Assembly: GCF_037126465.1 (NCBI RefSeq)
Contig: NW_026999326.1
Location: 1,824,001 to 1,888,000, forward strand
From: Ornithodoros turicata
Lineage: Eukaryota > Arthropoda > Arachnida > Ixodida > Argasidae
Length of the DNA: 64,000 nucleotides
Direction: 5' to 3'
Part shown: piece after piece, positions 5,259 through 50,415 of the stretch
How positions within the stretch are numbered: position 1 is the stretch's first letter
Layout: each line of letters opens with the position of its first letter
Translations under genes and position numbers: made by a program
The notes under the pieces: generated by a model
Told to the model about the DNA's origin: nothing
Database searches by the model: none
The model's input: only the letters and a program-made list of their open reading frames with translations

Positions 5259-5507
5259 AAAGTAATTAATTCTAAAGAGAAAGAATAGATGAAGCAGGAT
5301 TTTTGTTGGAATAGCTGTCACTGAGGGTTGCAAAAGGAAGGTGAAAAGGCACAGTTGCAGATAAATATTGTTTGTAACATATGTGTGAGGGTTTATCACA
5401 TGGATGCTCTACTGCGTTGTGAAAAGTGAGTGCAATTATAAATTATCTACAGGATTATCTACCACATCGCAGAATTTGTTTAAAGCACACATGTTTTTTT
5501 CTTAATT

Positions 5508-5790
5508 CCATGTTAGCACCGCGAAGCAACTGTGGCTATGAGCGGCGTACAGACGAGGACCGATGGAGAGAGGACAGCAGGAAGGAGTAGGGGACAGATG
5601 GGGCACTATGCGTCCTATGCCGACCACAGGAGGAACTGTGCCGACATTCATCTGGAAAGTCTTCGGAGAACCCAGGGAAAACCTCAGACAGCACTGCCGG
5701 TGATAGGATTCAAACCCATGTCACCTCCCAGTCTCGGCGTGGAAAGCGGCCACCCTAACCACTATGTTACAGGAGCTGGTGCACACATGT
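5508..5790 (-). mobile_element. tRNA-derived SINE, near full length
   Basis: Read on the minus strand, the element starts with a tRNA-like head. It has an A-box-like TAGTGGTTAGGGTGG (around 5,750) and a B-box GGGTTTGAATCC (around 5,712), spaced as in a Pol III internal promoter. This is followed by a tRNA-unrelated body (CCTGGGTTCTCCGAAGACTT..) and a tail ending GCGGTGCTAACATGGAATTAAG plus A-run. The body is shared with the truncated plus-strand copy at 2,700-2,845. tRNA-derived SINEs of this build (such as Ruka) are described in ticks; assignment to a named family was not possible here. Confidence 0.8.
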
Positions 5791-6690
5791 TTTGTGTATA
5801 TGTCTGTGATGGCAAAAAGCTGCAACATAGCTACATTTTGGCACATAGCTAAAATAGTTCCTACGGTAACTCTCTATGCACATTTTGCCAACTTCAATTT
5901 CTGCAAGCCATTCTCCTTCGAAAGCTGCTCTATTTCCCGAGAGCTGGATCTACCTTTCTGTTGGGCTCAGCTGGAATCACTTGTGAAGCCGCTTGCATTC
6001 CCATTTCAACGGTCCCTCTTCTTCTCCGGCGGATGAAAATCGTCAGTAGCTGAATAGCCGTTTGGATTCACAAATATGTGCCATACTTGACTGCATACTG
6101 GTAACTGCAAACAGCACGAAGGGTATATTCATTGTATTTATTCTGAAATTTGAAGAAGGTAAATATATAGTGCTGCTAAATTAAGGAGAAATAAGTTTTA
6201 ATTCTTACTGACTATAGTCTATGCTCTGTATACTTTGTGCCAGTGATGTGTATGGGGCAGGTCAGCATTTAACGTGTTACGGGAGAACCGGTTGTACGTT
6301 TTGACTGAGTCTCTAATTGATGGTGCACATCTAAAATCATGTGGTCTGTCAATGTCACATCTGTCGAAAAATGTGCACCTTGTGCATCAGAAACCCAACG
6401 AGGAAATATTCAACAATAAGACCATGTACACATTAAACCACTTAATTTAACGATAATCCATACACGGGAACAAATTCCATAGCTTGAGAGGGAATACATA
6501 CTCTTAAAAAGAAAAAAAGAACATAAAAGGGAAAACTTGAGCACAAGGTCACAAAGCTATTTCAACACTGCTCATATCAGGACTATTTCTTTGTGCAGGT
6601 ATAATGTCGATATGAAGTAGCAGGTGGTCCGGTTGGTATACATATTTCGTTGCGTACCGGCGAAAGAAACAAAGACAAAAAGTACCGTAT
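5791..6690. other. Anonymous non-coding DNA
   Basis: No gene, repeat or splice pattern that I could support; short open frames only. Confidence 0.4.
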
Positions 6691-21094: not shown

Positions 21095-21257
21095 CTGGTG
21101 TATACGATTGAACGGAAACATCTTGAGTCTGAGGAGCAACGAAGGGGAGGGAGGGAACCTACACAGGATGGGTCTTGTCCCGTGTCCGTCCTGTGTAGTT
21201 CCCCCCCCCCCCTTCGTTGCTCCTGAGACTCAAGGAGATGTTTCCGTTCAGTGTACC
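21095..21257. repeat. Hairpin-forming inverted repeat, ~75-bp arms
   Basis: About 21,095-21,172 is the inverted copy of about 21,181-21,257 (GAACGGAAACATCT.., GAGCAACGAAGGGG.., CTACACAGGA). It lies in the first intron of the DUF4806-type gene. A C-run at 21,201-21,212 sits in the right arm. It looks like a small foldback element. Confidence 0.75.
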
Positions 21258-21377: not shown

Positions 21378-21478
21378 CAATGTATCCAGATGCCCGCAGG
21401 AAACTTAATGACCTGCAATACACCTTTGATGTTAACTCTGATTGTGAAGGGGACGGAAGAAAGCGGAACTGGGTAGTA
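21378..21478 (+). pseudogene. DUF4806-type gene, exon 2, left half
   Basis: Acceptor GTTTTTCAG at 21,377 precedes MYPDARRKLNDLQYTF and DVNSDCEGDGRKRNW. The coding frame reaches GTA GTA at 21,478 and is cut there by the giant palindromic element. Its continuation begins at 32,639. Confidence 0.65.
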
Positions 21479-21659
21479 TAGTTTAAGACGGCATAATAAC
21501 CGTACTGTGCAACGACCACGTTTTCTAATCCAAGATGACCGATTCTAATCCAATTCTAAGCCAAAATCCAGCTCTAAGCCAACAGAATCCAGTTCTAAGC
21601 CAACACAATCCACTTGTAACCCAACACAAGACAAATCCAAAGCCATCTGATAGGCCGCA

Positions 21660-22890
21660 TTAGCCCCGCCCACTTCACGTTGATTGGTCAATCGTAGCTC
21701 TGCTCCTTTTTGCTAATTAGTTGGCTTGGCTCCGCCCACTTCACGTTGATTGGCGCACACCGAGCCTACTGATCGTTGATTGGTTGATCGTAGCTCCACC
21801 CCTTTATGCTAATTAGTTGGCTCCGCTCACTTCACGTTCATTGGACCATGCTAAGCCCGCTGATCGTTGATTGGTTCACCATAGCTCAGGCCCTATTATG
21901 TTAATTACTTGACTCCGTCCACTCCAGGCTGATTGGTGCACGCCGACCCCGCTATGCTAATTAACCGGCTCCGCTGATTGGTCCTACTCTCCAGGCGCTC
22001 CGATTGGCGCGACGGCAGCCCCGCTGCAGCTTTATCTCAGATGTTCAAACGTACCTTGTGGCGTGGTCATACGCTGGTAGGCTCCACCTGCTATTGGCCC
22101 GTGCTAACCGCATGCCTCCACCCTGCTCCTCATTGGTTCACAACGTTTCTGCGCATGCTCTGACGGCGCCGAAGAAGGTTCCCTACACATTTATAGAAAC
22201 TATGCGATTGGTTCAGCAGCGTCATAGGGCACGGCTTGGTTCTGCTGTGGCTGGCCCTGATTGGTCCATGCTCGGCGCGCAACTCTTTACTGGCTCCACC
22301 CACTTCACGTTGATTGGTCCATTCTAAGCCTACTGACTTCTAAGCCATTCCACGCTATGCCTACTGATCACTCTACCAGACTTTCTAAACGCTCTAATTG
22401 GCCGCTACCGATTGGCCCTCACTGGCCCGTTCTAAGCCCACTGACACCAGATGGCGCAACTCTTCGCCAGCTCTACCTACTTCATGCCGATTGGTCCATT
22501 CTAAGCCTACTGATTGTCCCTTCACACCGAAGCCTACCGATGTCTGGCCCTGATTGGTCCAGTCTAAGCCTACTGAACAGTGATTGGCTAGCCTGTCGCT
22601 CCTAAACCACAATGCAGCAGCTTCAGACAAGGCACACGCCAATTGTTGATTTCAACCTTTATTTGGTACAACAGCCTCCTCGTCCAGCTGCATCAGAGAG
22701 TTCATTAGTCCTGGTCATCTCTTGCGCTCATTGGTCACTCAGCTCCCTTGATACACACCAACTGCTATCGGTTCATCTAACTGCAAGTGGTCTGCTCATT
22801 GGCCCATCTGACTACAAGCCTCTTATTGGTCACTTATGTCTAGAGCTCGCTAACAGGCTCCAACTGCAATTGGTCACTTCCACTCATCGC
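21660..22890 (+). promoter_or_regulatory. Dense ATTGG (inverted CCAAT) array, left arm
   Basis: I count about 22 ATTGG pentamers in 1.2 kb, nearly all on this strand, where about one is expected by chance. Many sit in a degenerate ~100-bp unit that also holds GGCTCCGCCCACTTCACGTT (GC-box-like) and TATGCTAATTA (octamer-like). The mirror region in the right arm (about 30,530-32,470) shows CCAAT instead. Either these are subterminal protein-binding sites of the element or an enhancer-like array. Confidence 0.6.
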
Positions 22891-25239
22891 TAGACCCAAC
22901 TGCTATTCCCTCTAATCTCTAGATGAGATAATAAAAGTTTAACTGTGGGATATTGAAACTTTTACTATAAGATCGATTTAGCCTGGGGCTGGTAGGCTCC
23001 AACTGCTATCGGCCCATGCCTCCATCCGGCTGCTCACTGGTTCACAATGAAACTTTTTCACATACTGTGCCCTACACATACAAGAGATGGCGCCGCTTGT
23101 GATTACCCTCTTTGCAAAGATGGACAGTTGCGTCGCTCCATTGCATTGGTGACTCATTTCTATCCAAGTGGTTCGTACTTCTAGAGAGCCTGCGTTAGAA
23201 GGCTGAACAGCTTACATGCCGCCGCCTGCCGCTGTTCACATAGCCACAGTTGCTAATGGGAAAAAACGTTTTCAGGGTACACATCTCAAAACACTCTACA
23301 CGAGTAAAGTTGGCTTCACCTGGTTGCATGCGTGCGTTACGTCAAGCCCACCCCTGAGAACAAGCTTAGGATCGTTCAGGATGTGTGTGCTTTGCAGTTC
23401 AACCTAAAAATTGTTTCAATCAAGCAGAATGGCAAATGATGCAATGGAGCGCGTTCATTCTTAAGAACGAACTTTGTGACAGAACCACAAAGAAAAAGCT
23501 TTTCAATGTGTATTAAACAAAGTGCAAAAAAACTCATCGTGATGCTAATCAGGGAAGCCAGCACGCGTTCGAAATAAGCAGGAAGAAGCACATGATCGAG
23601 AAAACATCGATAGTTTATGCTGTGCAGAGAAGCTGGTTTGAGAGTAAAACAACTTGAATGATCAATAAATCCTATAGAGTTTGGTTCCGTTTTTATTTTA
23701 GACAGCTCGCATTCAACACACGAAATTAAATAAATCGAGCAGAATGACAATAGCATAGTGGCGCTATGTGGTGAAGCTCAATACGCACTGACGCTCCAAC
23801 GCTTATTAAACAATGCTATGCACGCATGTACTGAAGCTTAAAAAAAGAAGACTCAACGCAAGCTGAGTATGAAGAAACACAATTTCACATTGCTCCCCTC
23901 AGAATATTCTGTTCAAACAGAGCCAGCGTATATTTCAGGCGACACAGCTCGTACGCGGAGCACAACTGGAAGCACCCTTAGAAATATAAGTTCAGGGCAC
24001 AACGTCGCACTATGAACTTCATGAATGTCTTCTATGAAGTTCATCTCGGAAAAAAAGCGCTCACCTTCGCAGATGGGCACATAGATTCACGAGCAACATG
24101 CATCAATATCTGAAACATGCGGCGCGTGGACAGCTCATAGATTCACGAGCACCATGCAGCAATATCTGAAACATGCGGCGCGTGGACAGCTCACGCGACT
24201 TTAACGAGTTGGTGTTTACTTGCAGCTTTAGACTTCAACATAAGATATTAATTAAATCAAGCACAAAGCACATTTATGCTATGTCGTGACTGTCGCTCTA
24301 ATGCTTATTAAACAAATTGCTCGGTGCCATGCACGCACGTACTCAACTCAAGCTGAGTATGAAGAAACACAATTTCAGATTCCTCTCTCCCCGAACATCC
24401 CGTGCAGTCGCTCCTCCACGTTCCTTCTCAATACTGGAAGCACCAATATTAAGATCATCGCACTATGAATAAGTCCATCTCATTAAAAAAAAATGGCTTA
24501 CCTCATCACACCGGTATTACGCACGTAGATTCTTGTCGCGCGACGCGCTACAGCAGGGTAGAGAAACACGGGCGCGTTGACAGCTCACACGATTTCAGCT
24601 TGCCCGCGCACACCTCACAACATGCGCCGACACACCAAAATGTCGCGCACCTTCCAGGCACCCACATGTCGACCACTTACCGTGCCAGCCGCACGGAAGA
24701 CTTGATAGCCGAAACACAGGCGCGTAACACACCCTTCCTGTTGGGACCATCTCTTTTATATCAATGCTCGCTCGTTTCCGCAAGGTTGCAAGTCCGAGAA
24801 ATTGGGTCACCTTGAAGATGTGTTCGAGCCATCTGTGTAATGTCAAAACGCACTTCCACCCGTCATGGCCAAACTGAGTACTCTCCGGCGGACCCTAGCG
24901 GAAAAAAAATGTTGCGTCAAGGTGATGTATCGAGAAACTGGGTCACCTCGTAAATCATGTTCTCCGAGGCCGCGCGTATTAAAACCAAAAGTAAGCAGTG
25001 ATCACACCACGCTATGCGAAGAAAAAAATATCCCTATGAGCCTCGTCACCACCCGCCCATTTCCGAAACAAGCACCAAAAACAAAGGGTTGGCTTATGCA
25101 GCTTCCAAGAAGCCCCAAATGTCCTTTGCGCGCGCGCATCGGGCCGTTCCTGCGTGATTGTGTAAACAAAATCGCACCACCCTCTGAGGGCGCATTTGAG
25201 TTCCGTTCGTCGGTCGACTCTGGGTCAAGCGCACAACGA

Positions 25240-25600
25240 GGAAAATGAAGAAAGTTCTTATTTTCAATTCATTCGGTGCGCGTAGAAACTGAGAAGTCGT
25301 CTGTTTTCGAAAACCTGGATAAACCCAGTGATGGGAGCATTGTTCCGGAGAACGAAAAGCTGGATGTGTTGGACTTACGCAAGGTCGACAGGCGGACTCC
25401 TGATGGAAAGCGATTCACAGATGAGGAGTTGCAAGAAATGCGTGAATTACCGGATCTGAAACTAGAGAAGAGATGCATGGATGGATCGCCCCGAAATCAT
25501 CGTTACTCACACGAAGTGATGCATCCCACTGAGACCAGCGAAAGTGCGCGCGTCTCATATGTAATCATCAGTAAAATAAAAGTATTTCCTGTTTTTAGGG
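25240..25600 (+). CDS. Small arm-encoded reading frame, left copy
   Basis: An open stretch encodes SSVFENLDKPSDGSIVPENE, LDVLDLRKVDRRTPDGKRFT and DEELQEMRELPDLKLE, followed by an AATAAA at about 25,576. The mirror copy on the minus strand (27,928-27,674) encodes nearly the same peptide; there the frame ends LMDGSAEIIFTHTK-stop, whereas the left copy runs on through a 1-nt insertion. A possible acceptor (GCGCGTAG at about 25,285) suggests it is a last exon. No family was recognised. Confidence 0.45.
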
Positions 25601-26121
25601 GGGAAAATTCTGTGTTGTGTGATGGGGGGAGGGAGAAGCTATATAGATAGGTGATAAGGAGAATGACTATAGAGCACGTACTCATCGACTAAGCGAGTAT
25701 AGTTTGTGGAGAGCGCCACGCTATTTTAAAGCCATTTTATATCATATCCCAAACGTTCTGCGCGATCAAACAGCATTATGGAAAGCAGAAAACCGTTTCA
25801 CGCATCACGGTGCGTGCGCGTTTCAGCGTGCTCAAACAAGTTCTGGCTATTAGTAAAAGAAGTAGTTTTGGGTTTCCAGGTAGGTTCTGCATGGTGTTTC
25901 CAGCGCATCAGGCGATATTCTACAACAACGTAAATTGTTCTGCGCGATCAAACAAGTCCCGCTCCCCTTTATACAAATGACGCGCTTGCCATATCATAAC
26001 TTGTTTCAGCGTGCTCAAACAAACTCTGGCTTTTGTGGTGAGACGTGGGACTCGTATGATGGTGCAGATTTGTAAGAAACACTGATGATATTCAGGGGGA
26101 TTACCCTCCGACATTTGTTTC

Positions 26122-27059
26122 GACATCTTCTTCTTCATTGTTTACGCACATTGAGATCATTCAGAGATTTTTGATGCAACTGAACGTTTATTTGCCGAAA
26201 GTACCATTTCACTCAATTCTTGGAAAGATAACCGACCGCTCGCTTCGTAAATCATAGAACAACAACGTTGATTCCACCGATAGATGGGCACGCATAGCTG
26301 AAGGAGAGCTTGAAAGATATCTACAGGTACAATGTCTTCGTATTCCGACCTCTTTAGGACTTCATTGAGATTACGTGATATTTTGAATAGAATTGAGACT
26401 CCTCGTTCTCGCTCGATTTTGCGAAATGGCGCGTTCACCAGTACGCGATTTGCGGAGCGACGGCAACATCGAGAATTTTTTCTGTTCCGCGGAGGCAGTA
26501 GCAACAACAGGTTTCTCGCAACCGTATGGTTTGGTTCCGCTCGCATATAAATCGTTCAACGAGAAGCCGAGCATAGTGTCACAAAGATACGCTTCCCATC
26601 TCGCTGCTAAAATCAATAAAGATAATGAAAAAATTGTTTGTGGTAAACACGCTATTCACAACACTTTAGCGAGGATGTCTTCTAACGTGCAAACAAAACG
26701 TTCCTTTCCCTCGACGACGGTAATGTGCAAGCTCGTGTGATTCTTTTTCCAGTAGTCACGCACCACGGGGATGGAAAACCCGGCATTTATGATTGTCTCG
26801 TTGATGGGTTCTCCGTTTCTATATCGCTCCAACAGTTCCAACTTGTATCTTACAAACTGTCTCATTTTATGAGTACTCTGCACGGGAATAGCTCTCAAAA
26901 TGTCACTAAAATCACTCTCTTCTCCGCGTCGATTTAAAAAGTTGTGTAGGCATTGTAAATCTCCCAGCATGCGTTTACATACGAACTGATCCATCTCACA
27001 CGACACACCGGGGCTTCGCACTTTCGCGGTAGTCAAGTCGCTGCTCATCACTTTTCTCA
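26122..27059 (-). other. Unique core of the giant palindrome with minus-strand frames
   Basis: This is the only non-duplicated part. On the minus strand a 134-codon frame starts at the arm boundary (27,060, MRKVMSSDLTTAKV) and ends at 26,656, including MDQFVCKRMLGDLQCLHNFL and LELLERYRNGEPINETIINA. Two further overlapping minus-strand frames follow (26,616-26,371 and 26,546-26,157). All three together could be one frame-shifted or spliced gene of about 270-300 residues. I recognise no domain; no DDE, RVE or rolling-circle motif is visible. If the element has an enzyme of its own, this is the only place for it. Confidence 0.4.
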
Positions 27060-27673
27060 TGTCGGAGGATCATCCCTTGAATCTCTTCAGTGTTTCTTAC
27101 AAATCTGCACCATCATACGAGTCCGACGTCTCACCACAAAAGCCAGAGTTGTTTGAGCACGCTGAAACAAGATATGATATGGCACGCGCGTCATGTGTAT
27201 AAAGGGGAGCGGGACTTGTTTGATCGCGCAGAACAATTTACGTTGTTGTAGAATATCGCCTGATGCGCTGGAAACACCATGCAGAACCCGCCTGGGAACC
27301 CAAAACTACTTCGTTTACTCATAGCCAGTACTTGTTTGAACACGCTGAAACGCGCACGCACCGTGATGCGTGAAACGGTTTTCTTCTTTCCATAATGCTG
27401 TTTGATCGCGCAGAGCGTTTGGGATATGATATAAAATGGCTTTAATATAGCGTGGCGCTCTCTACAAACTATACTCGCTTAGTCGATGAGTACGTGCTAT
27501 ATAATCCTTCTCCTTATCACTTATCTATATACCTTCTCCCCCCCCCCCCCATCACACAACACAGAATTTTCCCCCTCAAAAACAGGAAATACTTTTATTT
27601 TACTGATGATTACATATGAGACGCGCGCACTTTCGCTCGTCTCGGTGGGATGCGTCACTTCGTGTGAGTAAAG

Positions 27674-27928
27674 ATGATTTCGGCCGATCCATCCATGAGT
27701 CCCTTGTCCAGTTTCAGATCCGGTAATTCACGCATTTCTTGCAACTCTTCATCTGTGAATCGCTTAAAACGCGTTTATCGCTTTTCATCAGGAGTACGCC
27801 TCCCCGTGTCGACCTTGCGTAAGTCCAACGCGTCCAGCTTTTCGTTCTCCGGAACAATGCTCCCATCACTGGGTTTATCCGACTTTTCGAAAACAGACGA
27901 CTTCTCAGTTTCTACGCACACCGAATGA
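27674..27928 (-). CDS. Small arm-encoded reading frame, right copy
   Basis: Mirror of the 25,240-25,600 frame. The peptide matches over SSVFE, KPSDGSIVPENEKLD, LDLRKVD, RRTPDEKR and RFTDEELQEMRELPDLKLDK, then MDGSAEIIFTHTK before a stop. An extra TAA within a ~15-bp insertion near 27,765-27,785 breaks the frame once. Retention of the same peptide in both diverged arms hints at former coding use, or simply common descent of the arms. Confidence 0.4.
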
Positions 27929-28278
27929 ACTGAAAATTAGAACTTTCCTTATCTTCCTCGTTGTGCGCTTGACCCAGAGTCGACCCACGGACGGAACTCA
28001 AATGCGCCCATGGAGGGTGGTACGATTTTGTTTACACAATCACGCAGGAACGGCCCGATGCGCGCGCGCGAAGGACATTTGGAACTTCTTGGAAACTTCA
28101 TAAGCGAACCCTTTGTTTTTAGTGCTTGTTTCGGCAATGAGCAGGTGGTGACGTGGGCTCATAGGGATATTTTTTTTGTTCGCATAGCGTGGTGTGATCA
28201 CTGCTTACTTTTGGTTTTAATACGCGCGGCCTCGGAAAACATGATTTACGAGGTGACCCAGTTTCTCGGAGAAAGACT

Positions 28279-28470
28279 ACCGTAATTTCACGCGTATTAG
28301 CCGCGGCTTATGCGCGATTTTTTTTTCTCATGGGCGCTGTGCGGCTTATCCACCGGTGCGGCTTATCTGATGACTTTTTTTTGTCAGGTATTTTCGCCAT
28401 ACACTGATTTTAACGAGAGAGTCGACAGTGTCTCTGGAATAGCACTGCCCTGCTGATGCACGAACGCAAC
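28279..28470. mobile_element. Small insertion private to the right arm
   Basis: The left arm reads straight from GTTGCGTCA to CGAGAAACTGGGTC, while the right arm has about 190 extra bases here. They include GTAATTTCACGCGTATTAGC and repeated GCGGCTTAT motifs. It is probably a small retroposon or MITE remnant. Confidence 0.5.
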
Positions 28471-31400
28471 ATGACGCAACATTTTTTTCCGCTAGGGTCC
28501 GCCGCAGAGTACTCAGTTTGGCCATGACGGGTGGAAGTGCGTTTTTGATATAAAACAGATGGCTCGAACACATCTTCAAGGCGACCCAATTTCTCGGACT
28601 TGCAACCTTGCGGAAACGAGCGAGCATTGATATAAAACAGATGGCCCCAACCGGAGGGGTGTGTTACGCGCCTGTGTTTCGGCTATCAAGTTTTCCGTGC
28701 GGCTGGCACGGTAAGTGGTCGACATGCGGGTGAACCAGGAACGTGCGCGGCATTTTGGTGTGTCGGCGCATATTGAGCCTGTGTGCGCGGGCAGGCTGAA
28801 ATCGTGTGAGCTGTCCACGCGCCCGTGTTTCCCTACCCTGCTGTAGCACTTCGCGCGACAAGGATCTACGTGCGTCATACCGGTGTGATGAGGTAAGCCA
28901 ATTTTTTTTTTATGAGATGGACTTGCTCATAGTGCGGCGATCTTAATATTTTTAATATTGGTGTTTCCACTATAGAGAAGGAACGCGGAGGTGCGACTGC
29001 ACGGGATGTTCGGGGAGATAGCAATCTGAAACTGTGTTTCTTCATACTCAGCTTGAGTTGAGTACATGCGTGCATAGCACCAAGCAATTTGTTTAATAAG
29101 CATTGGAGCGTCAGTCACGACATAGCATCACTGTGCTTTGTCCTCGATTTAATTAATATCCTATGTTGAAGTGCACCGTCCAAAACTGCAATATGCGTAA
29201 ACATGAGCTGGTTAAAGCCGCGTGAGCTGTCCACGCGCGGCATGTTTCAGATATTGCTGCATGGTGCTCGTGAATCTATGAGCTGACCACGCGCCGCATG
29301 TTTCAGATATTGCTGCATGGTGCTCGTGAATCTATGTGCCCGTCTGCGAAGGTGAGCGCTTTTTTTCCGAGATGAACTTCATAGAAGACATTCATGAAGA
29401 CCATAGCGCGACGTTGTGCCCTGAACTTATATTTCTAAGGCTGCTTCCAGATGTGCTCTGCGTACGAGCTGTGTCGCGTGCGCTGGCTATGTTTGAACAG
29501 GAGCATTCTGAGGAGAGCAATGTGAAATTGTGTTTCTTCATACTCAGCTTGGGTTGAGTCTTCTTTTTTAAGCTTCAGTACGTGCATGCATAGCATTGTT
29601 TAATAAGCGTTGGAGAGTCAGTGCGTCTTGAGATTCACCACATAGCGCCACTATGCTATTGTCATTCTGCTCGATTTATTTAATTCCGTGTGTTGAATGC
29701 GCGCTGTCTAAAATAAAAACGGACCCAAGCTCTATTGGGTTTCTTGATCATTCAAGTTGTTTTTCTTTCAAACCAGCTTCTCTGCACACCATCAACTATC
29801 GATGTTTTCTCGATCATGTGCTTCTTCCTGCTTATTTCGTGCTGGCTTGCTGGCTTCCCTGATTAGCATCACGATGAGTTTTTTGCATATTGTTTAATAC
29901 ACGTTGATTTTTTTCGTGGTTCTGTCACAAAATTCGTCGTCAAGAATGAACGCGCTCCATTGCATCATTTGCCATTCTGCTTGACTGAAATAATTTTTAG
30001 GTTGAACTGCAAAGCACACACAGCCTAAACGATCCTAAGCTTGATCTCAGGGGTGGGCTTGACCTAACGCACGCATGCAACCAGATGAAGCCAACTTTAC
30101 TCGTGTAGAGTGTGTTTTGAGATGTGTACCCTAAACACGTTTTTTAATTTCCCATTAGCAACTGTGGCTATGTGAACAGCGGGAGGCGGCGGCATGTAAG
30201 CTGTTCAGCCTTTTAACGCTGGCTCTCTAGAAGTATGAACCAGTTGGATAGAAATGAGTCACTAATGCAATGGCGCGACGCAGCTGTCCATCTTTGCAAA
30301 GATGGTAATCACAAGCGGCGCCATCTCTTGTATATGTAAGGACGCCGTCAGAGCATGTGAAAAAGTTTCATTGTGAACCAGTGAACAGCCGGATGGAGGC
30401 ATGGGCCGATAGCAGTTGGAGCCTACCAGCCCCAGGCTAAATCTATCTTATGGTAAAAGTTTATACAGTTAAACTTATATTATTTCATCTAGATATTAGA
30501 GGGAGTAGCAGTTGGGTCTAGCGATGAGTGGAAGTGACCAATTGCAGTTGAAGCCTGTTAGGGAGCTCTAGACATAAGTGACCAATGAGAGGCTTGTAGT
30601 CAGATGGGCCAATGAGCAGACCACTTGCAGTTAGATGAACCGATAGCAGTTGGTGTCTGTCGAGGGAGCTGAGTGACCAATGAGCGCAAGAGATGACCAG
30701 GACTAATGAACTCTCTGATGCAGCTGAACCAACCCACAGCTGGACCAGGAGGCTATTGTACCAAATAAAGGTTGAAATCAACAATTGTCATGTGTCTTGT
30801 CTGAAGCTGCTGCATTGTGGTTTAGGAGCGACAGGCTAGCCAATCACAGTTCAGAAGGCTTAGCGTGGTTCGGCTTAGAAGTCAGTAGGCTTAGAATGGA
30901 CTAATCAGCATAAAGTAGGCAGAGCTGGTGAAGAGTTGCGCTATCTGGTGTCAGTGGGCTTAGAACGGGCCAGTGAGGGCCAGTCGGTAGCAGCCAATTA
31001 GAGCGTTTAGAAAGTCTGGTAGAGTGATCAGTAGGCTTCAAATGGACCAATCAACGCGAAGTGGAGCCAGTAAAGAGTTGCGCCACGAGGTAAGTAGCAT
31101 GGACCAATCAGGGCCAGACACAGCAGAACCAAGCCGTGCCCTATGACGCAGCTGGACCAATAGCATAATTTCTATTAAATGTGTAGGGAACCTTCTTTGG
31201 CGCAGTCAGAGCATGTGCAGAAACGTTATGAACCAATCAGCAGCAGGGTGGAGGCATGCGGTTAGCACGGGCCAATAGCAGTTGGAACCTACCAGCGTAT
31301 GACCCCACTAAACTTATCTTATCGTAAAAGTTCTCTCTCCCACAGTTAAATTTACATCTCATCTAGAGATGAGTGTGAGTGATCAATGAGTGGCTTGCTG

Positions 31401-32638
31401 TACAATGGATCAATAGCAGTGGGTCAGTGACCACTTGCTGTTAGATGCACCAATCGGAGTTGGAGCCTATGAGGGAGCTGTGACCAACTAGAACCAATAA
31501 GGAGCTGGGTGAGCGGCTACTTGCAGTCAGATGGACTAACGAGCAGACCACTTGCAGTTAGATGAACCAATAACAGTTGGAATCTACCGAGGGAGCTGAG
31601 TAAGCAATGAGCGTGAGAGATGACCGGGACCAATGATCTCTCTGATGCAGCTGAACCAACCCACGGCTGGACTAGGAGGCTGTTGTACCAAATAAAGGTT
31701 GAAATCAACAATTGTCGCGTGTCTTGTCTGAAGGTGCTGCCTGGCTTAGGAGCGATAAATTCAGGTTAGCCAATCACCGTTCAGTAGGCTTAGCGTGGAC
31801 CAATCAGGCCCAGCCATCGTTAGGCTTAGAATGGACCAATTGTTGTGAAGGGCCAATCAGCGTGAAGTGGGCGAAACCAGTAAAGAGTTGCGCCATCTGG
31901 TGTCAGTGGGCTTAGAACGGGCCAGCGAGGGCTAATCGGTAGGCTTACATTGGGGACGGCCAATAAGAGCGTCAGGAAAGTCTGGGAGGGTGATCAGTAG
32001 GCATTGGCTTACACGTCTGAATCAGTAGGCTTAGAATGGACCAATCAGCATGAAGTGGGCGGAAAGTTGCACGCCACAAGGTAAGTTTGAACATCTGACA
32101 TAAAGCCGCAGCTTGGCTGCCGTTGGGCCAATCGGAGCGCGTGGAGAGTAGGACCAATCAACGGAGCCGGTTAATTAGCATAGCGGGGGCGGCGTGCACC
32201 AATCAGCCTGAAGTGGGCGGAGTCAAGTAACTAACATAAAAGGGGCAGAGCTATCGTGAACCAATGACCGATCAGCGGGCTTAGCATGGTTCAATGAACG
32301 TGAAGTGAGCGGAGCCAACTAATTAGCATAAAGGGGTGGAGCTACGATCAACCAATCAACGATCAGTAGGCTCGGTGTGCACCAATAACGTGCCAATCAA
32401 TGATGATCAGTGGGGCTTGGCGTGGACCAATCAACGTGAAGTGGGCGGGGCTAACGGCGGCCAATCAGATGGCTTTGGATTTGGCTTGTGTTGGATCACA
32501 AGTGGATTGTGTTTGCTTAGAACTGGATTCTGTTGGCTTAGAGCTGGATTTTGGCTTAGAATTGGATTAGAATAGGCCATCTTGGATTAGAAAAAGTGGT
32601 CGTTGTACAGTACGGTTATTATGCCGTCTTAAACTATA

Positions 32639-32699
32639 CTGCTGAACTGCTTCCCACCAAAACGCTTTATTGAAGACGTCTCTGAGGAGCTCATGCAAG
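32639..32699 (+). pseudogene. DUF4806-type gene, exon 2, right half
   Basis: Directly after the TA duplication the frame continues as LLNCFPPKRFIEDVSEELMQ to a donor CAAG/GTAAAT at 32,699-32,700. The reading frame is the one left open at 21,478. Confidence 0.6.
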
Positions 32700-32915
32700 G
32701 TAAATACATCTTTTTGAATTCAGAATGTTTGTCTTCTTTCTTCATAAATTCACACTTTTGACAGAAACGGACAAGCATTCACACCTTTTATCATCACAAC
32801 ATGTGAACCAGAGCCTTTTGAAGTCACATGAAGCAAGGAAGGGTAATTTTGCAAAGTGTATACTCATTTGCTTAGTTTTGAAAGCTGAGGGGTCAGAAAT
32901 AACCACAATATTTAA

Positions 32916-40439: not shown

Positions 40440-41560
40440 TGTTTATGCGCTCAATCTCCTGCTTCTCGTAGGTTATGTCAGGCGGCAGTGGTGCAGTTAC
40501 TCCGCCATCTAGTGCCGTAGTTCCCGTTTCCGGCTCCTCCTCGTAGGTTGTGTTCGGTGGCAGTTTTACAGTTACTCCGCCCTCCAGTATAGTATTTCCC
40601 GAGTCGTGCTGCTCTTCGTTGTCGGCTTGTGAAGGGTACTCTGGCTCATCGTAACAGGTATTCGTAGTTGGAGGGGACGGTGGGCGCCCTCCTCCTCGTA
40701 GCTCATTTCTTCGCAGTGCACGTGCATTTTCCCTTCGGTGCCATACTAGGTGGTTTTCTAGACCTCTCGTAAATGGGAATGTGTCTGTTCTACGACGAGG
40801 GAAGGCCTACGACGCCACTGCAACGCGCCGAAAAAAGTCAATATTTCTACGTTGTCCAAGGCCTACGACGTTCACATTATATTTCCCGCTCCATGACCAT
40901 TTGGAATGCTGTGAGGAAGCGTGTTTGTCAGCGTGCCGATCGACCACCTGGGCCTTCCAAAGAAGCTCACTAACGAGGCATCTTGAACGAGACCACAGCA
41001 TCCGGATCGGCACGTTAAGGTACATCTGCGCGGACTGTAATGAACTTCTGAACTCAAGACCTACATCGCAAAAGGGCAGCCACGCCAGCCATTCCTCGAA
41101 TCCACCCCCACGACGAACACATGACCACAAATTCAATGAATGCAACGGCACATTCCCATCTAGCGTCTCTGGCGATGAACCTCCCCACTCTCCATCTCAA
41201 AATAAAGTTGTTGTTGTTAGGAGAGGTCTAGAAAACCACCTAGTATGGCATCGAAGGGAAAATGCCCGTGCACTGCGAAGAAATGAGCTACGAAGAGAAG
41301 AGCGCGCACGGTCCCCTCGAACTACGGATACGTGTCATGATGAGCCGGAGTACCCTTCACAAGCCGACAACGAAGAGCAGCACGACCGAGAAATACGACA
41401 CTGGAGGACAGATTTACTGTACCACTGCCACCGAACACAACCTGCGAGGAGGAACGGGACCCGGGAACTACAGCAGTAGAAGGTGGAGTAACTTCACCAC
41501 TGTCACCGGACACAACCTACGAGGAGGAGCCGCACCCTAACCATCCGGCTGGAGCAGGCA
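40440..41560. repeat. Inverted duplication around an R2-like N-terminal segment
   Basis: 40,440-40,770 is the inverted copy of 41,218-41,560. Shared blocks include TAGAAAACCACCTAGTATGG, CATTTTCCCTTCG, GCAGTGCACG, TACCCTTCACAAGCC and CAACGAAGAGCAGCACGA. The outer halves carry the same R2-like coding sequence in opposite directions. The centre holds the zinc-finger part of the ORF and, at 41,173-41,220, the (GTT)n-tailed retroposon end. Confidence 0.75.
40781..41480 (+). pseudogene. R2-like copy 1, N-terminal zinc-finger region
   Basis: SSLTRHLERDHSIRIG (HX4H end of a finger), YICADCNELLNSRP (CX2C start) and GLENHLVWHRREN (finger 3 end) parallel the three-finger head of copy 2 (47,040-47,320). 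The region would give DNA-target specificity. The retroposon end at 41,173-41,220 interrupts it. Confidence 0.7.
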
Positions 41561-45162: not shown

Positions 45163-45555
45163 TTGCAGGCGATGTGGCCACGACTGAGAGACACTACCCC
45201 ACGTCATGGCTCACTGCATGCGCATGAGCACGCTCTACACCGCCAGGCACAACAAACTCGTCGAGAGGGTAAAGCAAGCAGCCAAGGGACGCTTCACTGT
45301 CATCAGGGAAAACCAGAACAAAGGCGACACAGGCCTTCGTCCAGACATCGTCCTTGCAAGAGGAGAGGAAGCACTAATCATAGACGTGACCATCCCCTTT
45401 GAAAACAGACGGGAAGCCTTCACCAAAGCATGAGAAGCTAAGGTACAAAAGTACCAACCCGTAAGCAACCACGTACTGAGACGATTCCAAACGGTACACT
45501 TGGACGCGGTGATTGTCGGATCCCTGGGAAGCGGGGACCCGGAAAACGACAAAAC
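45163..45555 (+). pseudogene. R2-like copy 1, RLE endonuclease region
   Basis: MAHCMRMSTLYTARHNKLVE leads to GLRPDIVLARGEEALIIDVT and PFENRREAF, the PD..(D/E) core of the restriction-like endonuclease of R2-type elements. KVQKYQPVSNHVL and AVIVGSLGSGDPEN follow after a stop at 45,431. It would nick the target DNA for primed reverse transcription. Confidence 0.82.
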
Positions 45556-46110
45556 GGCATGGTTTTCGAGACACCGAATAAAAACTACTCCTCTGAAGAC
45601 ATCCGGTTTCGTTTTTCTCCCTCGCATACTCCTCTCCCCAAGGATCCTCTATGTACGTCAGCCGTCACGTGAGCATGACGTCCCCAAAGGACAAAGTGGA
45701 GCGGAGGGCTGCACCGTTTCTGGGAATGCAGATAGTTTTTTTTTTTTTTTTCTATGAGTGTACTGAACAGAAGGCTGCGTCGTGATACCTGTGTTTACAT
45801 TGACGCTACTCCGCATTTTCCTCTGCATCACGTGTGATTGTTACTCAAAGTCATCATAATGAGCAAATGCTAGCACGCTAGAACCAACTATCGCGCAGGC
45901 ATGCGCAAGTCGCGTGCGGCATTGCTCTTATGTACGTCACGCGAGAGGTCGCTGCGGTCTTTACTCAGGACCAACTTCGGCATAGAAAAAACTGGATTAT
46001 AAATTGTGCGATACGATTTCTTCTGAAATATTTTGCACGGTTGTTGTCAGAAGTATTAGAAATCATAATGCGGTGTTTCCCAGACCTATGTTTTCGACTG
46101 GACTGTCACT
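45550..46110. mobile_element. Truncated MITE copy, inverted relative to 50,416-51,056
   Basis: Matches about 50,416-50,995 in reverse complement (ATGTACGTCAGCCGTCACGT, GACGCAGCCTTCTGTTCAGT, CGATTTCTTCTGAAATATTT blocks). It keeps one end: GGACTGTCACT followed by TTAA at 46,111-46,114. The other end is fused to the RLE region of R2-like copy 1. Confidence 0.8.
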
Positions 46111-46356
46111 TTAAAGAAGATGAAGCCGCTCGCCGTGAGTGAAATCATCGCTGCGTTGTGTGACAATATACGTCCACCTCGTAACTGGGAAAGAAGGGCC
46201 TTAAATACCTTTTAATGCTTCCCATGACCTCTGCACCTTGCAGCAATTACCGCTAAGAATTGTCTTTACTTGTATTACTAGAATTTATTATTAATATTAA
46301 TTCTACATTATTATTATCTATTACTATTGCTCTAAGAAATATCTTTAGCATTATTA

Positions 46357-46510
46357 AATACTCTGTTCTGATCAGCTTAATATCTTATACGAGATATCTT
46401 ATCTTTCGACTCGCGATATTAATCTTATTTTCGGCCCGAGACAGTGTGTCTGAAGCTCGCCTCGGCACTGTCAAGGGTTGCCCCGGTATTGCACTACCTC
46501 CAGGTGCAGC
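46357..46510 (+). pseudogene. U2 snRNA pseudogene, positions ~33 to 3' end
   Basis: AATACTCTGTTCTGATCAGC and TTAATATCTTATACGAGATA correspond to the U2 branch-site region and stem-loop II (canonical ..ATCTGTTCTTATCAG and TTAATATCTGATACG). A diverged middle follows, then CGGTATTGCACTACCTCCAGG matching the 3' stem-loop (GGTATTGCAGTACCTCCAGG). The first ~33 nt of U2 are missing, replaced by AT-rich sequence. This is the downstream part of a U2 gene cut near the point where the element at 46,880 also enters U2. Confidence 0.72.
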
Positions 46511-46851
46511 CGACCCGTCTCAAATAAAAGAAAATAATTCGGAAACTGCACCAATAAGCAGCGAAGCGAAAGGGAGCCCAAACTGGCGACGTGCCATGCG
46601 CGGACGTAGAAGGCGAGACTGCGACAGAAGCGAAAGGGGGAGACATGCAGTCTATATCCCTTCTCGGTCTTTTGGAGGATACAAGGGAGAAAGAAACACG
46701 AGTTCCGTCCACTAACGTGCGCATTTCATGCAGTCCGACTATCATTCTAGTGCTTCTTACACGCACCACATCATGTCGAATTTGGCGACGTGAGACACGC
46801 GAAGGCAGGTACCGCGACCGTGACCAGAGAGAGAGATGGACGTGCAATATC
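46511..46851 (+). promoter_or_regulatory. U2 gene spacer/promoter copy 1
   Basis: About 340 bp between a U2 3' end and the next U2 5' end. It shares with 49,888-50,165 the blocks AATAATTCGGAAACTGCACC, AATAAGCAGCGAAGCGAAAG, ACACGAGTTCCGTCCACTAA and GCACCACATCATGTCGAATT. As the conserved sequence just upstream of U2 it should contain the snRNA proximal sequence element, but I could not delimit it. Confidence 0.55.
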
Positions 46852-46879
46852 TTCGCTTCTCGGCCTTTTGGCTAAGATC
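46852..46879 (+). pseudogene. U2 snRNA 5' fragment, positions 1-28
   Basis: TTCTCGGCCTTTTGGCTAAG, preceded by CGC and followed by ATC, is the near-invariant U2 5' end. It stops after ..AAGATC, where R2-like copy 2 begins (GGAATACAAAGC). Confidence 0.85.
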
Positions 46880-46946
46880 GGAATACAAAGCTGTACAAGC
46901 AAAAGCAAAGTACAAGAGATGTTGACAAGAGCTGCGAATCACTCGG

Positions 46947-48559
46947 ATGGCAGCCCGTAGTCCTGGAGACAGCGTTCAGCAGCGACATCCGCAATGCTCT
47001 GGTGGCTGCCTGACGGTATGGTTTCCTGTTCCGGACGACTTCACCTGCCCCGAGGATGACTGCTCTACTGCCTTTCGCACAGGAGTATAGACGTCTCAGC
47101 GGCGCTCCTTGGAACGGCACCTGGAGCTAGCCCACAAGGCAAGTATTACGAGCACGGTATACCGGTGCCGCATATGCAACCGCACGTTGGGGCCGAGGCC
47201 ACTCTACCACCAGTGCCTTCAAGATCACGACGCTCCTAATGAGGCCTCACGACAGTTCCCGCACTTGTGTACAACGTGTGACCGCTCATTCCCCTCAAGG
47301 AAAGGACTCTCGAATCATATGCTCTGGCACCAAAAGGAAGAGGAGAAAGGCGGACGAGCAACAACAACAAGAACATGTGAGTCAGCTGGCAATGCTCAAC
47401 CCCCACAGGGGAGCAACGCCCCTTTCCGTCATGACCCACGCAGTCCAGTCAGCCCAGCTGCCGCCCGTCAGAGCATGACTGTATTTTCAACTACCGATAG
47501 GTCTTCTTCAGGTCATGAACTGATATATTCGCAAGGAGCTGTTCCAACATCGTCGTGCCTTGACCATACGTCACCGCAAGAAGATGCAACGTGCCCCACG
47601 GGAAATAGACTGAGGACACCGGAAAGCGCCGCCGTGTTTTCCGCCCCGTCGTCATGCATTCCGCCGTCATCCGGCGCGGGTGCGGAGTACCAGGAGCCTG
47701 CTCTATCCCGAGAGCAAGTAGGCCTACCTGACCATATGGGGGGCATGACCCGGAGAGAACACCAGCGAGCGCGGAACGGGCTCAAACCGGTTCGGCGAAC
47801 GTGGACGGCGATCCAGTGGAGCCCGCCGAGACCATAAACGGCGCACTTCAGGCGAACCCATTCAGTTCCCTGGCCCCTACGCTGACTGAGGAACCAAGGC
47901 CTGTGCTGACTCCACGTGACAACGTAGCAGCGTACGAGATACGCAACAGCCAAGATGGAATGCTGCCTTCGCACATCGTGACGACCCTAGTGATCGGCAA
48001 CGATGACAACGATCTACCAGAAGAACAATCAACCACGGAAGTAGAGGGCCTTACCACGGGGACAAATAATCATGGTGAAGGTACAGGCCCTTTACAGCTC
48101 CTGCGGGACCTGGCAGCTGAGGTCCGCCAAATTATGAACGGAGTACGAACAGAAGAATCGTGGGAGAGGTTTGAACGCCTCCTTGAAGATGCGACTGCGT
48201 CTGTGGCAGAATATGTAAAATTACCACCTCTGCGGGAAGCAGATGAAGGAACCAGCAGGACCATTAACCCGGAGGACCCGAAGGCAATTCAACGCTTATA
48301 CAGAAGGAACCGCCGGCAGGCGGTGCGTCTAATCGTACAGGGAGCACATACGCGTTACTCCATCGAAGCAGCCGAGGTGGAACGACACTTTTCAGGAGTA
48401 TGGAGCGCGAGCTCTACGCCGGACCTTGCGGCCTGCCGACGGCCTAGGGCTGAAAAGCAAGTAGACCTCAGCCCGTTCTCGCCGGAAGAGGTGCCTAGGA
48501 AAGCTGCACGTTGTGAGAACACTGCGCCGGGCTCCGATCGTCTTACATACCGTCATTGA
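46947..48559 (+). pseudogene. R2-like copy 2, N-terminal zinc fingers and RT entry
   Basis: ATG 46,947 opens MAARSPGDSVQQRH. Finger 1 is CPEDDCSTAF..RRSLERHLELAH with a TAG at 47,088 between its halves; finger 2 starts YRCRICNRTL; finger 3 is CTTCDRSFPSRKGLSNHMLW followed by H. A low-complexity linker leads, after a frame change near 47,810, to PEDPKAIQRLYRRNRRQAVR and PFSPEEVPRKAARCENTAPG, then a stop at 48,557. The reverse transcriptase catalytic core is missing. Confidence 0.82.
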
Positions 48560-48599
48560 CTCGCAGCCGACCCGCAGTGCACATTTCTCGCTGCAGTAT

Positions 48600-48643
48600 T
48601 CCATCTGTGTATGATGTGGAATGCCACATCATACACAGATGGA
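48600..48643. repeat. Perfect 20-bp hairpin at the RT deletion junction
   Basis: TCCATCTGTGTATGATGTGG (48,600-48,619) and its exact complement (48,624-48,643) flank a 4-nt loop AATG. The left side follows element sequence before the deleted RT core and the right side begins the sequence after it, so the inverted copy sits exactly at the deletion. Confidence 0.9.
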
Positions 48644-48644
48644 T

Positions 48645-49868
48645 ACATGCTGTGTATGCCAGTTGGGATGCATGCAGCCATCTTCAACGTCAATGGAAAC
48701 GCCATTCCTCCGCTGAGGGACTTTGAAAAAATTGCGTACCTCGGTAAGCCGGTGGGGTTTTCGCTGCTCAACGGCGATTCAGAAGTGCACAACACGATAT
48801 ACCTAGTGCAAAAGCTGCTGTCCTCGATGCTGGCTCCATGGCAGCGACTGGATGCCATACGAACATTTTTGTACCCAGCATTAAATTTTGCCATGAGAAC
48901 AGGCATCATCGCCAAGACGCAGTGGGAAAAACTCGACGCGCTGCTACGACCACTCATTAAGCGCACTCTATACCTCCCTAAAAATGCATCAAATGAATAC
49001 ATTTATGGCAGCGCAAAGAAAGGAGCGTGTGGAGTCCCCATCGCTGCTGAGCTCAGCGATATCTGCCATGTTGACAATGCATATAAGTTACTAACTTCGA
49101 GGGATGAGGGATTGTCCCGACTGTCGATGGAAGATCTCATTGACATTGTGGGGGATCACTTACGGCGCCCAGTGAATACAGCCGACGCCGAGGCATACCT
49201 GAATGGGGACACCGAGGGAGACTTAAGAGCAGTATCCACCCAGCTACGGAGTGTCTGGACGGAGGCGAGAAAAGCGTCCAGACGGCTGAACATCACCTGG
49301 ACCTTGGTGGAGAGCGACCCATGCATAGGCCGGCGGAGTACTACTATTACGCCTCGAACGCGTACAAAACTACTAGCTAGCATACGGGCCCAGCTCAACT
49401 CTGAGAGGGATTGCCGCCTGCAGTCCCTACCAAGCCAGGGAAAGGTGATGACCTGCATTGCAGCAGACCGGGCGAGTAGCCACTTCATCAGGACTGGTGC
49501 TTACACGCGCTTTGCGCACTGGCGGTTTGTACATCGGGCGAGGTTGAATTTACTCACGGTGAATGGAGCCAGGCAGTGGGCCCCAGCCAACGATAACAGA
49601 TGCAGGCGCGGCAACCATCCTGCATAGACGTTGCCACATGTCGTGAACCATTGCATGGTGCACAGCAGGGCCATGACAAAGAGGCACAACAGAGTTGTAG
49701 ACAGACTAAAGAAGGCTGCTCTGACCTGGTTCACTATAATAGAGGAAAATCAAGACACCGGAGGGCTTGGTCTGAGTCCTGACTTGATCCTGGCAAGAGG
49801 GGAGGAAGCCATCATCCTGGATGTAACCTGCCCTATCGAGAATCAGCCCGAGGTCTTGCCAGGCCTTG
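48645..49868 (+). pseudogene. R2-like copy 2, RT thumb and RLE remnant
   Basis: Open from 48,611 to 49,627: YLGKPVGFSLL, PWQRLDAIRTFLYPALNFAM, RTLYLPKNASN, CGVPIAAELSDICHVDNAYK, VWTEARKASRRL and FAHWRFVHRARLNLL, colinear with copy 1. After a frame change the RLE reads GLGLSPDLILARGEEAIILD and VTCPIENQPEVLPG, then runs into U2 3' sequence at 49,869. Copy 1 has about 50 more residues here, so the RLE C-terminus is lost. Confidence 0.85.
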
Positions 49869-49887
49869 ACTACCTCCAGGTGCAGCC
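49869..49887 (+). pseudogene. U2 snRNA 3' fragment
   Basis: ACTACCTCCAGGTGCAGCC matches the end of the U2 3' stem-loop and is identical to 46,493-46,511 except at the last base or two. It directly follows R2-like copy 2. Confidence 0.7.
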
Positions 49888-50165: not shown

Positions 50166-50195
50166 ATCGCTTCTCGGCCTCTTGGCTAAGATCAA
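50166..50195 (+). pseudogene. U2 snRNA 5' fragment, positions 1-30
   Basis: ATCGCTTCTCGGCCTCTTGG then CTAAGATCAA: one substitution (CTCTTGG for CTTTTGG) from canonical U2. Similarity stops at 50,195, within two bases of the break at 46,879, and unrelated sequence follows. This suggests another insertion at the same U2 position. Confidence 0.82.
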
Positions 50196-50411: not shown

Positions 50412-50415
50412 TTAA

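What the first reader, a model, noticed from the sequence alone, without database searches (positions are those of the whole stretch)
21479..32636. 11-kb palindromic element with arms of about 4.6 and 5.6 kb and a single 0.94-kb unique core
Seen: tips TAGTTTAAGACGGCATAATA and complement at 21,479 and 32,636, order of all sub-blocks mirrored, and a TA on each side. Removing element plus one TA leaves the interrupted exon open across the join. Arms differ by substitutions and by two indels that account for the length difference. Known TIR elements rarely have arms making up over 90% of their length. The only candidate gene space is a core I cannot assign to any transposase family. This could be an undescribed class of long-TIR DNA element, or a non-autonomous derivative that grew by inverted duplication.
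Basis: partly seen in the sequence, partly recalled or inferred. Interest (0 to 1): 0.88.

Follow-up and report, generated by a model that had tools for sequence, protein, structure and literature searches.

The report
Giant palindromic satellites of Polinton transposons
The 11-kb mirror-image insert is an old, decayed copy of a family of almost perfect giant DNA palindromes in a soft-tick genome that lack the genes to move themselves and appear to hitch-hike on virus-like Polinton transposons carrying the same ends; the way their two halves stay alike points to a hairpin stage in replication that can be tested.

Summary
The palindrome is real, but its ends and target-site duplication were misread. 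The element is 21,472-32,643 (11,172 bp), flanked by a 6-bp duplication GAACTG, not TA. Arms are 4.64 and 5.59 kb, about 6% apart; core 0.94 kb. Tips follow 5'-AGTAGTATAG, the (AGT)2 Polinton/Maverick end. The same genome (by one protein match, Ornithodoros turicata) holds decayed and young Polintons with such TIRs and pPolB, integrase and other Polinton genes; the window copy shows none. Its young relatives are near-perfect palindromes: an 11.85-kb copy on C9 has identical arms around a ~100-bp loop. Perfect 6-bp TSDs flank 12 of 12 palindromes and 11 of 11 Polinton-sized pairs examined. Among 45 tip pairs, integrase lies in 0 of 13 with a facing ORF1 pair and 23 of 28 without ORF1. The core is a remnant of the inner arm ends with two small ORFs of unknown function. 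In two of three older copies tested, and in young ones, arms resemble each other most within an element; the window's own arms are unresolved. I read it as a non-autonomous Polinton satellite replicating through a hairpin; the hairpin step is inferred.

The parts
21466..21471 (+). left copy of 6-bp target-site duplication GAACTG
   Evidence: perfect 6-bp duplications also in 11 of 11 other palindromes and 11 of 11 Polinton-size pairs examined there
32644..32649 (+). right copy of 6-bp target-site duplication GAACTG
21472..32643 (.). whole palindromic element, 11,172 bp, tips GGTAGTATAGTTTAAGACGG / rc AGCAGTATAGTTTAAGACGG (family tip AGTAGTATAG)
21472..26114 (+). left arm, 4,643 bp; lacks ~0.77 kb at 22,065 that the right arm and both arms of the 13.7-kb relative keep
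27059..32643 (-). right arm, 5,585 bp, inverted copy of the left arm, 6.1% substitutions apart
21472..22056 (+). left Polinton terminal inverted repeat, shared with gene-bearing Polintons C79, C1 19.6 kb, C2 19.7 kb, C2 7.1 kb (74.7-88.1% over ~590-630 bp)
32079..32643 (-). right Polinton terminal inverted repeat
24788..25714 (+). inner arm stretch related to a Polinton interval between the protease gene and the ORF ahead of pPolB (C79 element 5,262-6,433, 67-74% DNA); mirrored at 27,457-28,279
26115..27058 (.). core, 944 bp: remnant of the inner arm ends; no central hairpin loop and only one ORF1
26656..27069 (-). ORF1, 137 codons stop to stop (134 from its first Met), function unknown; 150 scored matches in the genome, 28 facing pairs
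26157..26555 (-). open frame whose middle (64 residues) is 48% identical to ORF2 of the C9 palindrome; ORF2b remnant
21379..21471 (+). 5' part of the interrupted host exon
   Evidence: in-frame join with 32,650-32,700
32650..32700 (+). 3' part of the interrupted host exon

Best explanation
The element is an old, decayed copy of a family of giant palindromic, non-autonomous Polinton (Maverick) satellites in a soft tick. Shown: it has Polinton ends and a Polinton-type 6-bp TSD, shares its TIR with gene-bearing Polintons of the same genome, and carries no detectable Polinton gene; young relatives are almost perfect palindromes whose arms were (nearly) identical when inserted. Inferred: the integrase, protein-primed polymerase and perhaps capsid of resident Polintons act on its ends in trans. 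Inferred: each strand of the linear palindrome folds into a ~5.9-kb hairpin with one protein-primed Polinton end and one looped end; polymerase entering at the Polinton end copies through the loop and regenerates the two-ended palindrome. Repair of the paired arms in the hairpin, or copying of one arm from the other, makes them alike before integration, after which they drift apart. The palindrome most likely began as a snap-back inverted duplication of one end of a Polinton. The window copy later lost the loop, one ORF1 and ~0.8 kb of one arm.
For: (1) TSD: 12 of 12 palindromes (window, C9 and ten others named from their tips and facing ORF1 pair; two of the 13 such pairs were not looked at) and 11 of 11 Polinton-size pairs have a perfect 6-bp TSD. 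Of six older tip pairs 4 are perfect and 2 have 5 of 6, read by eye. (2) The (AGT)2//(ACT)2 end motif with 6-bp TSD is given for vertebrate Mavericks in PMC8097293 (passages). (3) Polinton genes in TIR-sharing elements: DNA_pol_B_2 above its cut-off in one copy and just below in another, rve and Peptidase_C5 below theirs but with E 8e-6 and 1e-3; the ORFs are shared in the same order by tblastn, the 7.1-kb copy lacking three of them. None of eight Polinton proteins matched the window element or the 13.7-kb relative, or the 9.6-kb centre of the C9 palindrome. (4) Of 45 tip pairs among the 100 listed of 179 tips, integrase lies in 23 of 28 without a scored ORF1, 0 of 13 with a facing ORF1 pair, 1 of 4 with a single ORF1. 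(5) C9 copy: 11,854 bp; terminal ~1.1 kb of both arms identical, inner 9.6 kb 99.4% self-complementary with the mismatches in the loop. (6) ORF1 matches within 4 kb of each other: 28 facing pairs, 0 in any other arrangement, among 150 scored. (7) Arms cluster by element: 13.7-kb copy 96/94, 57-kb copy 100/100, C9 identical; holding the left arms of window, 13.7 kb and 57 kb as one clade costs 138 lnL units, p-AU 1.5e-89, a nominal value because the group was named after the smaller tree. In six young centres, 0-5 substitutions per ~1,150 bp within an element against 6-14 between. (8) TIR tree: the C9 palindrome's TIR groups with two young Polinton TIRs (100/100) and the window TIRs lie among older Polintons with moderate support, though C9 and window arm interiors differ by only 8.5-8.7%.
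Against: No extrachromosomal form, hairpin or terminal protein was observed; every replication step is inference. The window's own arms do not form a clade in the tree (17% of bootstrap trees; p-AU 0.21 does not reject one), so it alone does not prove identical arms at insertion. A third tip group, four palindrome-type ends (98/99), has no Polinton partner among the 26 TIRs sampled, so ends match a resident Polinton in only some groups. Apart from short repeats, 22,065-24,788 matches no gene-bearing Polinton found here, so which Polinton end was duplicated is unknown. 5 of 28 tip pairs without ORF1 also lack a scored integrase, and one 10.8-kb pair holds both ORF1 and integrase; only the best 150 matches of each protein were scored. 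Full palindromy was read only in C9 and in the centres of five others. ORF1 shows mild constraint (dN/dS 0.42-0.59) and no excess conservation over the rest of the arm when gaps are ignored, so it may not be a gene. The folded centre (z -8.5) includes arm stem on both sides and is stable by construction, so it says little about the loop. Older copies share an asymmetric core yet spread, so fully symmetric arms are not required.
Confidence: 0.7

Rival explanations
1. The palindrome arises anew again and again: one Polinton-like end is inverted-duplicated in each lineage, so arms are identical at birth and no homogenisation or hairpin cycle is needed.
For: Older and younger palindromes differ in their centre (young: ORF1-ORF2 in both arms around a loop; 13.7-kb and 57-kb copies: armL-ORF2-ORF2b-ORF1 reversed-armR), as separate births would give.
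Against: Window, 13.7-kb and 57-kb copies share the same arm/core junction (26,098-26,114 in window terms) and so probably one birth, yet the arms of the 13.7-kb and of the 57-kb copy are nearest to each other within the element and a left-arm clade is rejected (nominal p).
Confidence: 0.2
2. Arms are kept alike by gene conversion between the two arms in the chromosome after insertion, as in Y-chromosome palindromes.
For: Long inverted repeats can convert each other (general knowledge); arms within two of three older elements are more alike than between elements.
Against: Old copies have drifted (window 6.1%, 13.7 kb 3.2%, 57 kb 2.8%), with differences along the whole arm rather than in a few blocks (compared with C9), while the youngest copy is identical throughout. 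Blocks of identity within old pairs were not tested for.
Confidence: 0.12
3. A separate class of autonomous element whose own transposase lies in the core.
For: ORF1 is open without stops in 124 of 150 scored matches (hand count; the best-scoring ones, so biased upwards).
Against: 137 aa is small for a transposase (general knowledge). No Pfam match at E 1 for ORF1 or ORF2b, no database homologue (5 candidates, none at E 0.01), no PDB match better than E 0.42, a low-confidence fold (pLDDT 46). Ends, TIR and TSD are those of resident Polintons.
Confidence: 0.04
4. Assembly artefact: fold-back reads or unresolved adapters made the palindromes.
For: Perfect palindromes are a known long-read artefact (general knowledge).
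Against: Each palindrome checked has different flanks with the same 6-bp duplication on both sides, 12 of 12; in C9 the symmetry ends at the element tips; old copies have diverged arms.
Confidence: 0.02
5. A Tc1/mariner-like long-TIR element with TA duplication, as the finding implies.
Against: Paired copies place the end 7 bases further out with 6-bp duplications; no Tc1/mariner domain in the ten window ORFs scanned.
Confidence: 0.01

Closest known systems
Polinton/Maverick elements
   Same: 6-bp TSD, (AGT)2 ends, TIR sequence shared with gene-bearing Polintons of the same genome, similar total size (13 palindromes 11.27-13.45 kb; 19 of 23 integrase-bearing tip pairs 13.1-14.3 kb)
   Different: No Polinton gene found; inverted arms make up over 90% of the length, where vertebrate Maverick TIRs are 46-1,447 bp (PMC8097293, passages) and those of the four gene-bearing copies here ~0.43-0.79 kb
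Snap-back / palindromic defective genomes of protein-primed linear DNA (adenovirus symmetric deletions; yeast hairpin plasmid, Kikuchi et al. 1985)
   Same: Inverted duplication of one end of a protein-primed linear genome, hairpin able to rebuild a two-ended palindrome; needs a helper (recalled)
   Different: Recalled analogues, not tested; the Kikuchi title and a general sentence on hairpin plasmids were seen only as cited in PMC4443254 (passages), and the paper itself is not held. Ours are chromosomal insertions in an animal, spread over evolutionary time
Foldback / Galileo long-TIR elements
   Same: Very long, internally repetitive inverted repeats (PMC3573991, abstract start in the listing)
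   Different: Galileo is classed in the P superfamily; our TSD, ends and TIR are Polinton's
MITEs and other non-autonomous DNA elements
   Same: No own transposase, presumably moved in trans by a resident autonomous family with the same ends
   Different: MITEs are usually a few hundred bp (general knowledge); these stay near the helper's full length
Virophage/transpoviron-type satellites
   Same: A second replicon that would use the replication, and possibly packaging, machinery of a virus-like helper
   Different: No particle or transmission evidence; only listings and abstract starts seen

Membership tests
Polinton/Maverick | 6-bp target-site duplication | tested here: met
   window GAACTG/GAACTG; 12 of 12 palindromes examined perfect
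Polinton/Maverick | (AGT)2//(ACT)2 or (AG)3//(CT)3 termini | tested here: met
   11 of 11 other palindromes begin AGTAGTATAG; the window copy has one substitution at each end (GGTAGTATAG, AGCAGTATAG)
Polinton/Maverick | TIR shared with gene-bearing Polintons | tested here: met
   a third palindrome tip group has no sampled Polinton partner
Polinton/Maverick | protein-primed DNA polymerase B, RVE integrase, ATPase, protease, capsid genes | tested here: not met
   tblastn of 8 Polinton proteins at E 1e-4 finds none in the window element, at E 0.01 none in the C9 palindrome centre L050; integrase in 0 of 13 palindrome pairs. So it is not an autonomous Polinton, only a derivative
Polinton/Maverick | TIR length 46-1,447 bp (vertebrate set) | tested here: not met
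   arms 4.64 and 5.59 kb; range from PMC8097293
Non-autonomous Polinton satellite (this report) | mobilised in trans by Polinton proteins | not testable with these tools
   indirect only: shared ends, TSD and, in two tip groups, TIR kinship
Hairpin-replicating palindrome | arms near-identical at insertion | tested here: met
   C9 arms identical; within 0-5 against between 6-14 substitutions in six young centres; arms sister in two of three older copies; unresolved for the window copy itself
Hairpin-replicating palindrome | hairpin-ended extrachromosomal molecule with terminal protein | not testable with these tools
   needs DNA from tick cells
Tc1/mariner or other TA-duplicating element | TA duplication | tested here: not met
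Foldback/Galileo (P superfamily) | P-type transposase and its ends | tested here: not met
   ends are Polinton's; no Pfam transposase in the ten window ORFs scanned

The most novel reading that the evidence does not exclude
A satellite replicon of Polintons with a hairpin life form: a ~5.9-kb linear DNA with one protein-primed Polinton end and one folded hairpin end reminiscent of parvovirus termini, whose head-to-head dimer (11-13 kb, kept near the 13-14 kb of its helper, as packaging in a Polinton capsid would require) is the integrating form. Its ends are replaced over time to match an active Polinton family, and ORF1/ORF2 may act on the helper or the hairpin. It would be the natural counterpart, in animals, of palindromic defective adenovirus genomes, and indirect evidence that Polintons do replicate by protein priming and may form virions.
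Probability: 0.2. Interest if true: 0.88.

Novelty: new variant of a known kind. Interest (0 to 1): 0.66.

Why it matters
Polintons are thought to replicate by protein priming and perhaps to form virions; particles have not been observed according to the abstract of PMC8097293 (listing), and to my knowledge the replication has not been shown directly either. A family of giant palindromes that uses their ends and keeps both arms alike gives a natural test: a hairpin or palindromic replication form should exist next to Polinton DNA in tick cells. The arms also work as a molecular clock for each insertion, like LTRs. The kinship of TIRs between palindromes and resident Polintons suggests that a helper and its parasite exchange ends.

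Tried and rejected
TA target-site duplication: rejected by paired copies. Core as a transposase gene: no support (in one search two other window frames had weak Pfam hits, best E 0.054, far below cut-off; the fold of ORF1 alone has pLDDT 46 and was not used for fold searches). Long-arm pair on C6 with an 11-kb gap as a possible gene-bearing master: the 10 kb of its middle that was read holds no Polinton protein. The 57-kb copy as an autonomous giant: its extra DNA carries LTR-retrotransposon ORFs and one arm is split around it. ORF1 as a strongly selected gene: only mild constraint (in one search the window row was out of frame and its values were dropped, redone). Centre fold as evidence for a special loop: dropped, because the folded stretch includes arm stem. 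More arm pairs for the tree: not obtained. Empty site or paralogue of the exon: no answer. Papers: searches showed no description of palindromic Polinton derivatives; only listings were seen apart from passages of PMC2836005, PMC8097293, PMC4443254 and PMC1864894; most subscription papers are not held.


Full report
OBSERVATION. The window element is a real large palindrome. BLASTN of the element against itself gives three colinear inverted blocks covering 21,479-26,114 and 27,059-32,636; the unpaired core is 944 bp. Arms differ by 6.1% substitutions over eight aligned segments and by indels, the chief ones at 22,065 (left arm lacks ~0.77 kb present in both arms of a relative) and at 28,279-28,472. 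At E 1e-3 no part of the element matches the rest of the window.

ENDS AND TARGET SITE. A 20-base tip occurs 12 times in the own genome, and a 29-base version with up to 3 mismatches 24 times, against 0 for the reversed control. For the window it is GAACTG on both sides, and removing the element plus one copy leaves an open exon. A younger tip type (AGTAGTATAGACATAGACTG...) occurs 179 times with up to 2 mismatches, control 0; 100 places were listed. Eleven palindromes and eleven Polinton-sized pairs of this type, chosen from the 45 pairs in that list, all have perfect 6-bp duplications. (AGT)2//(ACT)2 ends with 6-bp duplications are a published signature of vertebrate Mavericks (PMC8097293, passages).

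THE HELPER. Elements with the window's tip type include four decayed gene-bearing Polintons (C79 21.8 kb, C1 19.6 kb, C2 19.7 kb, C2 7.1 kb). The 19.7-kb copy has matches to rve integrase and adenovirus-type protease (both below Pfam's cut-off, E 8e-6 and 1e-3), DNA_pol_B_2 above it, and ATPase- and capsid-like ORFs (these two named from resemblance and gene order, not from a Pfam hit), with a Ty3-type retrotransposon inserted. The same proteins match the others in the same order; the 7.1-kb copy lacks the protease, the main capsid-like ORF and the ORF ahead of pPolB. The younger tip type has Polintons with an uninterrupted pPolB-bearing ORF of 1,146 and 1,196 aa in the two copies looked at. 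The integrase is open over 351 codons in many of 150 scored matches of 4,456 candidates and lies in 23 of 28 tip pairs without a scored ORF1. The pPolB ORF is 91% identical to an Ornithodoros turicata protein, so the host is probably that soft tick or a close relative.

THE PALINDROME FAMILY. The arm interior gives 99 matches in the 40 scored of 951 candidates, many in facing inverted pairs, others single or broken. The window ORF1 gives 150 scored matches of 2,983 candidates; 28 facing pairs and no other arrangement lie within 4 kb, 2,187 bp being the commonest spacing. The C9 copy is 11,854 bp from tip to tip; its terminal ~1.1 kb is identical in both arms and the inner 9.6 kb is 99.4% self-complementary, the mismatches lying in a GC-rich centre of ~100 bp. 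Five other young centres are 97.8-98.6% self-palindromic. In the C9 copy each arm carries ORF1 (137 codons) and, after one TGA in the same frame, ORF2 (101 codons); ORF2 is broken or shortened in two of the five other centres. The 13.7-kb and 57-kb copies form an older type in which the palindrome stops at 26,098-26,114 (window terms) and the core holds ORF2, an ORF2 paralogue and one ORF1 in opposite orientation; the window shares the junction, has lost ORF2 and has the paralogue turned round. No Polinton gene was found in the window, the 13.7-kb copy or the C9 centre, and no scored integrase in the 13 ORF1-pair elements.

ARMS. A tree of 3,061 columns pairs the two arms of the 13.7-kb copy (96/94) and of the 57-kb copy (100/100); the C9 arms are identical. 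Left and right can be told apart by the shared asymmetric core, so arms that had evolved apart since the palindrome arose should group left with left; that costs 138 log-likelihood units (p-AU 1.5e-89, nominal: I had seen the smaller tree before naming the group). The window's own arms are unresolved (17% of bootstraps; p-AU 0.21), which fits a nearly star-like old radiation. In six young centres arms differ by 0-5 substitutions within and 6-14 between elements. So arms were nearly identical at insertion in the copies where it can be told, and drift afterwards. The TIR tree puts the C9 palindrome's TIR with two young Polintons (100/100) and the window TIRs inside the older Polintons with moderate support (89/84 for the window pair, 83-93 bootstrap for the forks around it), while the interiors of C9 and window arms are only 8.5-8.7% apart: ends seem to have been exchanged with helpers. 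Against this, four palindrome-type ends (57-kb right, C8, C9:1.5 Mb, C25; 98/99) have no Polinton among the 26 TIRs sampled, and three of those four are called palindromes from arm matches without both arms having been read.

MECHANISM. Shown: ends, TSD, shared TIR, absence of genes, arm likeness at insertion. Inferred: Polinton integrase and protein-primed polymerase act in trans; a displaced strand folds into a long hairpin whose arms are matched by repair or copying; reading through the loop restores the palindrome; origin by a snap-back event on one Polinton end. The centre folds well as DNA (-68.6 kcal/mol, shuffles -41.8), but the stretch includes arm stem, so this is expected of any palindrome. 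Yeast hairpin plasmids and adenovirus palindromic defectives are recalled parallels; only a citation and one general sentence were seen. The palindromes' lengths (11.27-13.45 kb in 13 pairs) lie mostly below the helpers' (median 13.95 kb of 23), which would fit packaging but does not show it.

WHAT REMAINS OPEN. Function of ORF1/ORF2 (dN/dS of ORF1 0.42-0.59; no family; no homologue of ORF1); the source of the interior 22,065-24,788; extrachromosomal forms; empty sites; occurrence in other ticks.

Noticed in passing
window 45,551-50,974: Second long inverted-repeat element: arms of ~565 bp, 88.6% alike, 4.3 kb apart; ends and TSD not worked out.
   Followed up: no
window 40,459-41,529: Inverted repeat with ~314-bp arms (87%) and a 0.44-kb middle, perhaps a smaller non-autonomous DNA element.
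   Followed up: no
window 1-624: Inverted pair of 247 nt, 88% complementary, 130 nt apart, starting at the window edge.
   Followed up: no
window 21,112-21,247: Short hairpin-like stretch with mirrored ends, seen by eye, just upstream of the interrupted exon.
   Followed up: no
G000 tip pairs of 13.1-14.3 kb, e.g. L058, L059: The tick genome holds many young Polintons with open integrase frames, open pPolB frames in the two looked at, and perfect TSDs in 11 of 11 pairs, a sign of recent activity.
   Followed up: partly
L009, L010, L051, L058, L059: TIRs of the window and C9 palindromes are nearest to those of different Polinton groups although their interiors are close: possible end exchange between helper and satellite.
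   Followed up: partly
L050 and L053-L057 centres: By eye the central loop occurs in both orientations relative to the plus strand, with small length differences at its base; it contains nested small palindromes, reminiscent of parvovirus terminal hairpins (recalled).
   Followed up: partly
G000 C25:4,435,347-4,454,375: Several arm and ORF1 matches in a mixed-orientation cluster, perhaps a compound or nested palindrome.
   Followed up: no
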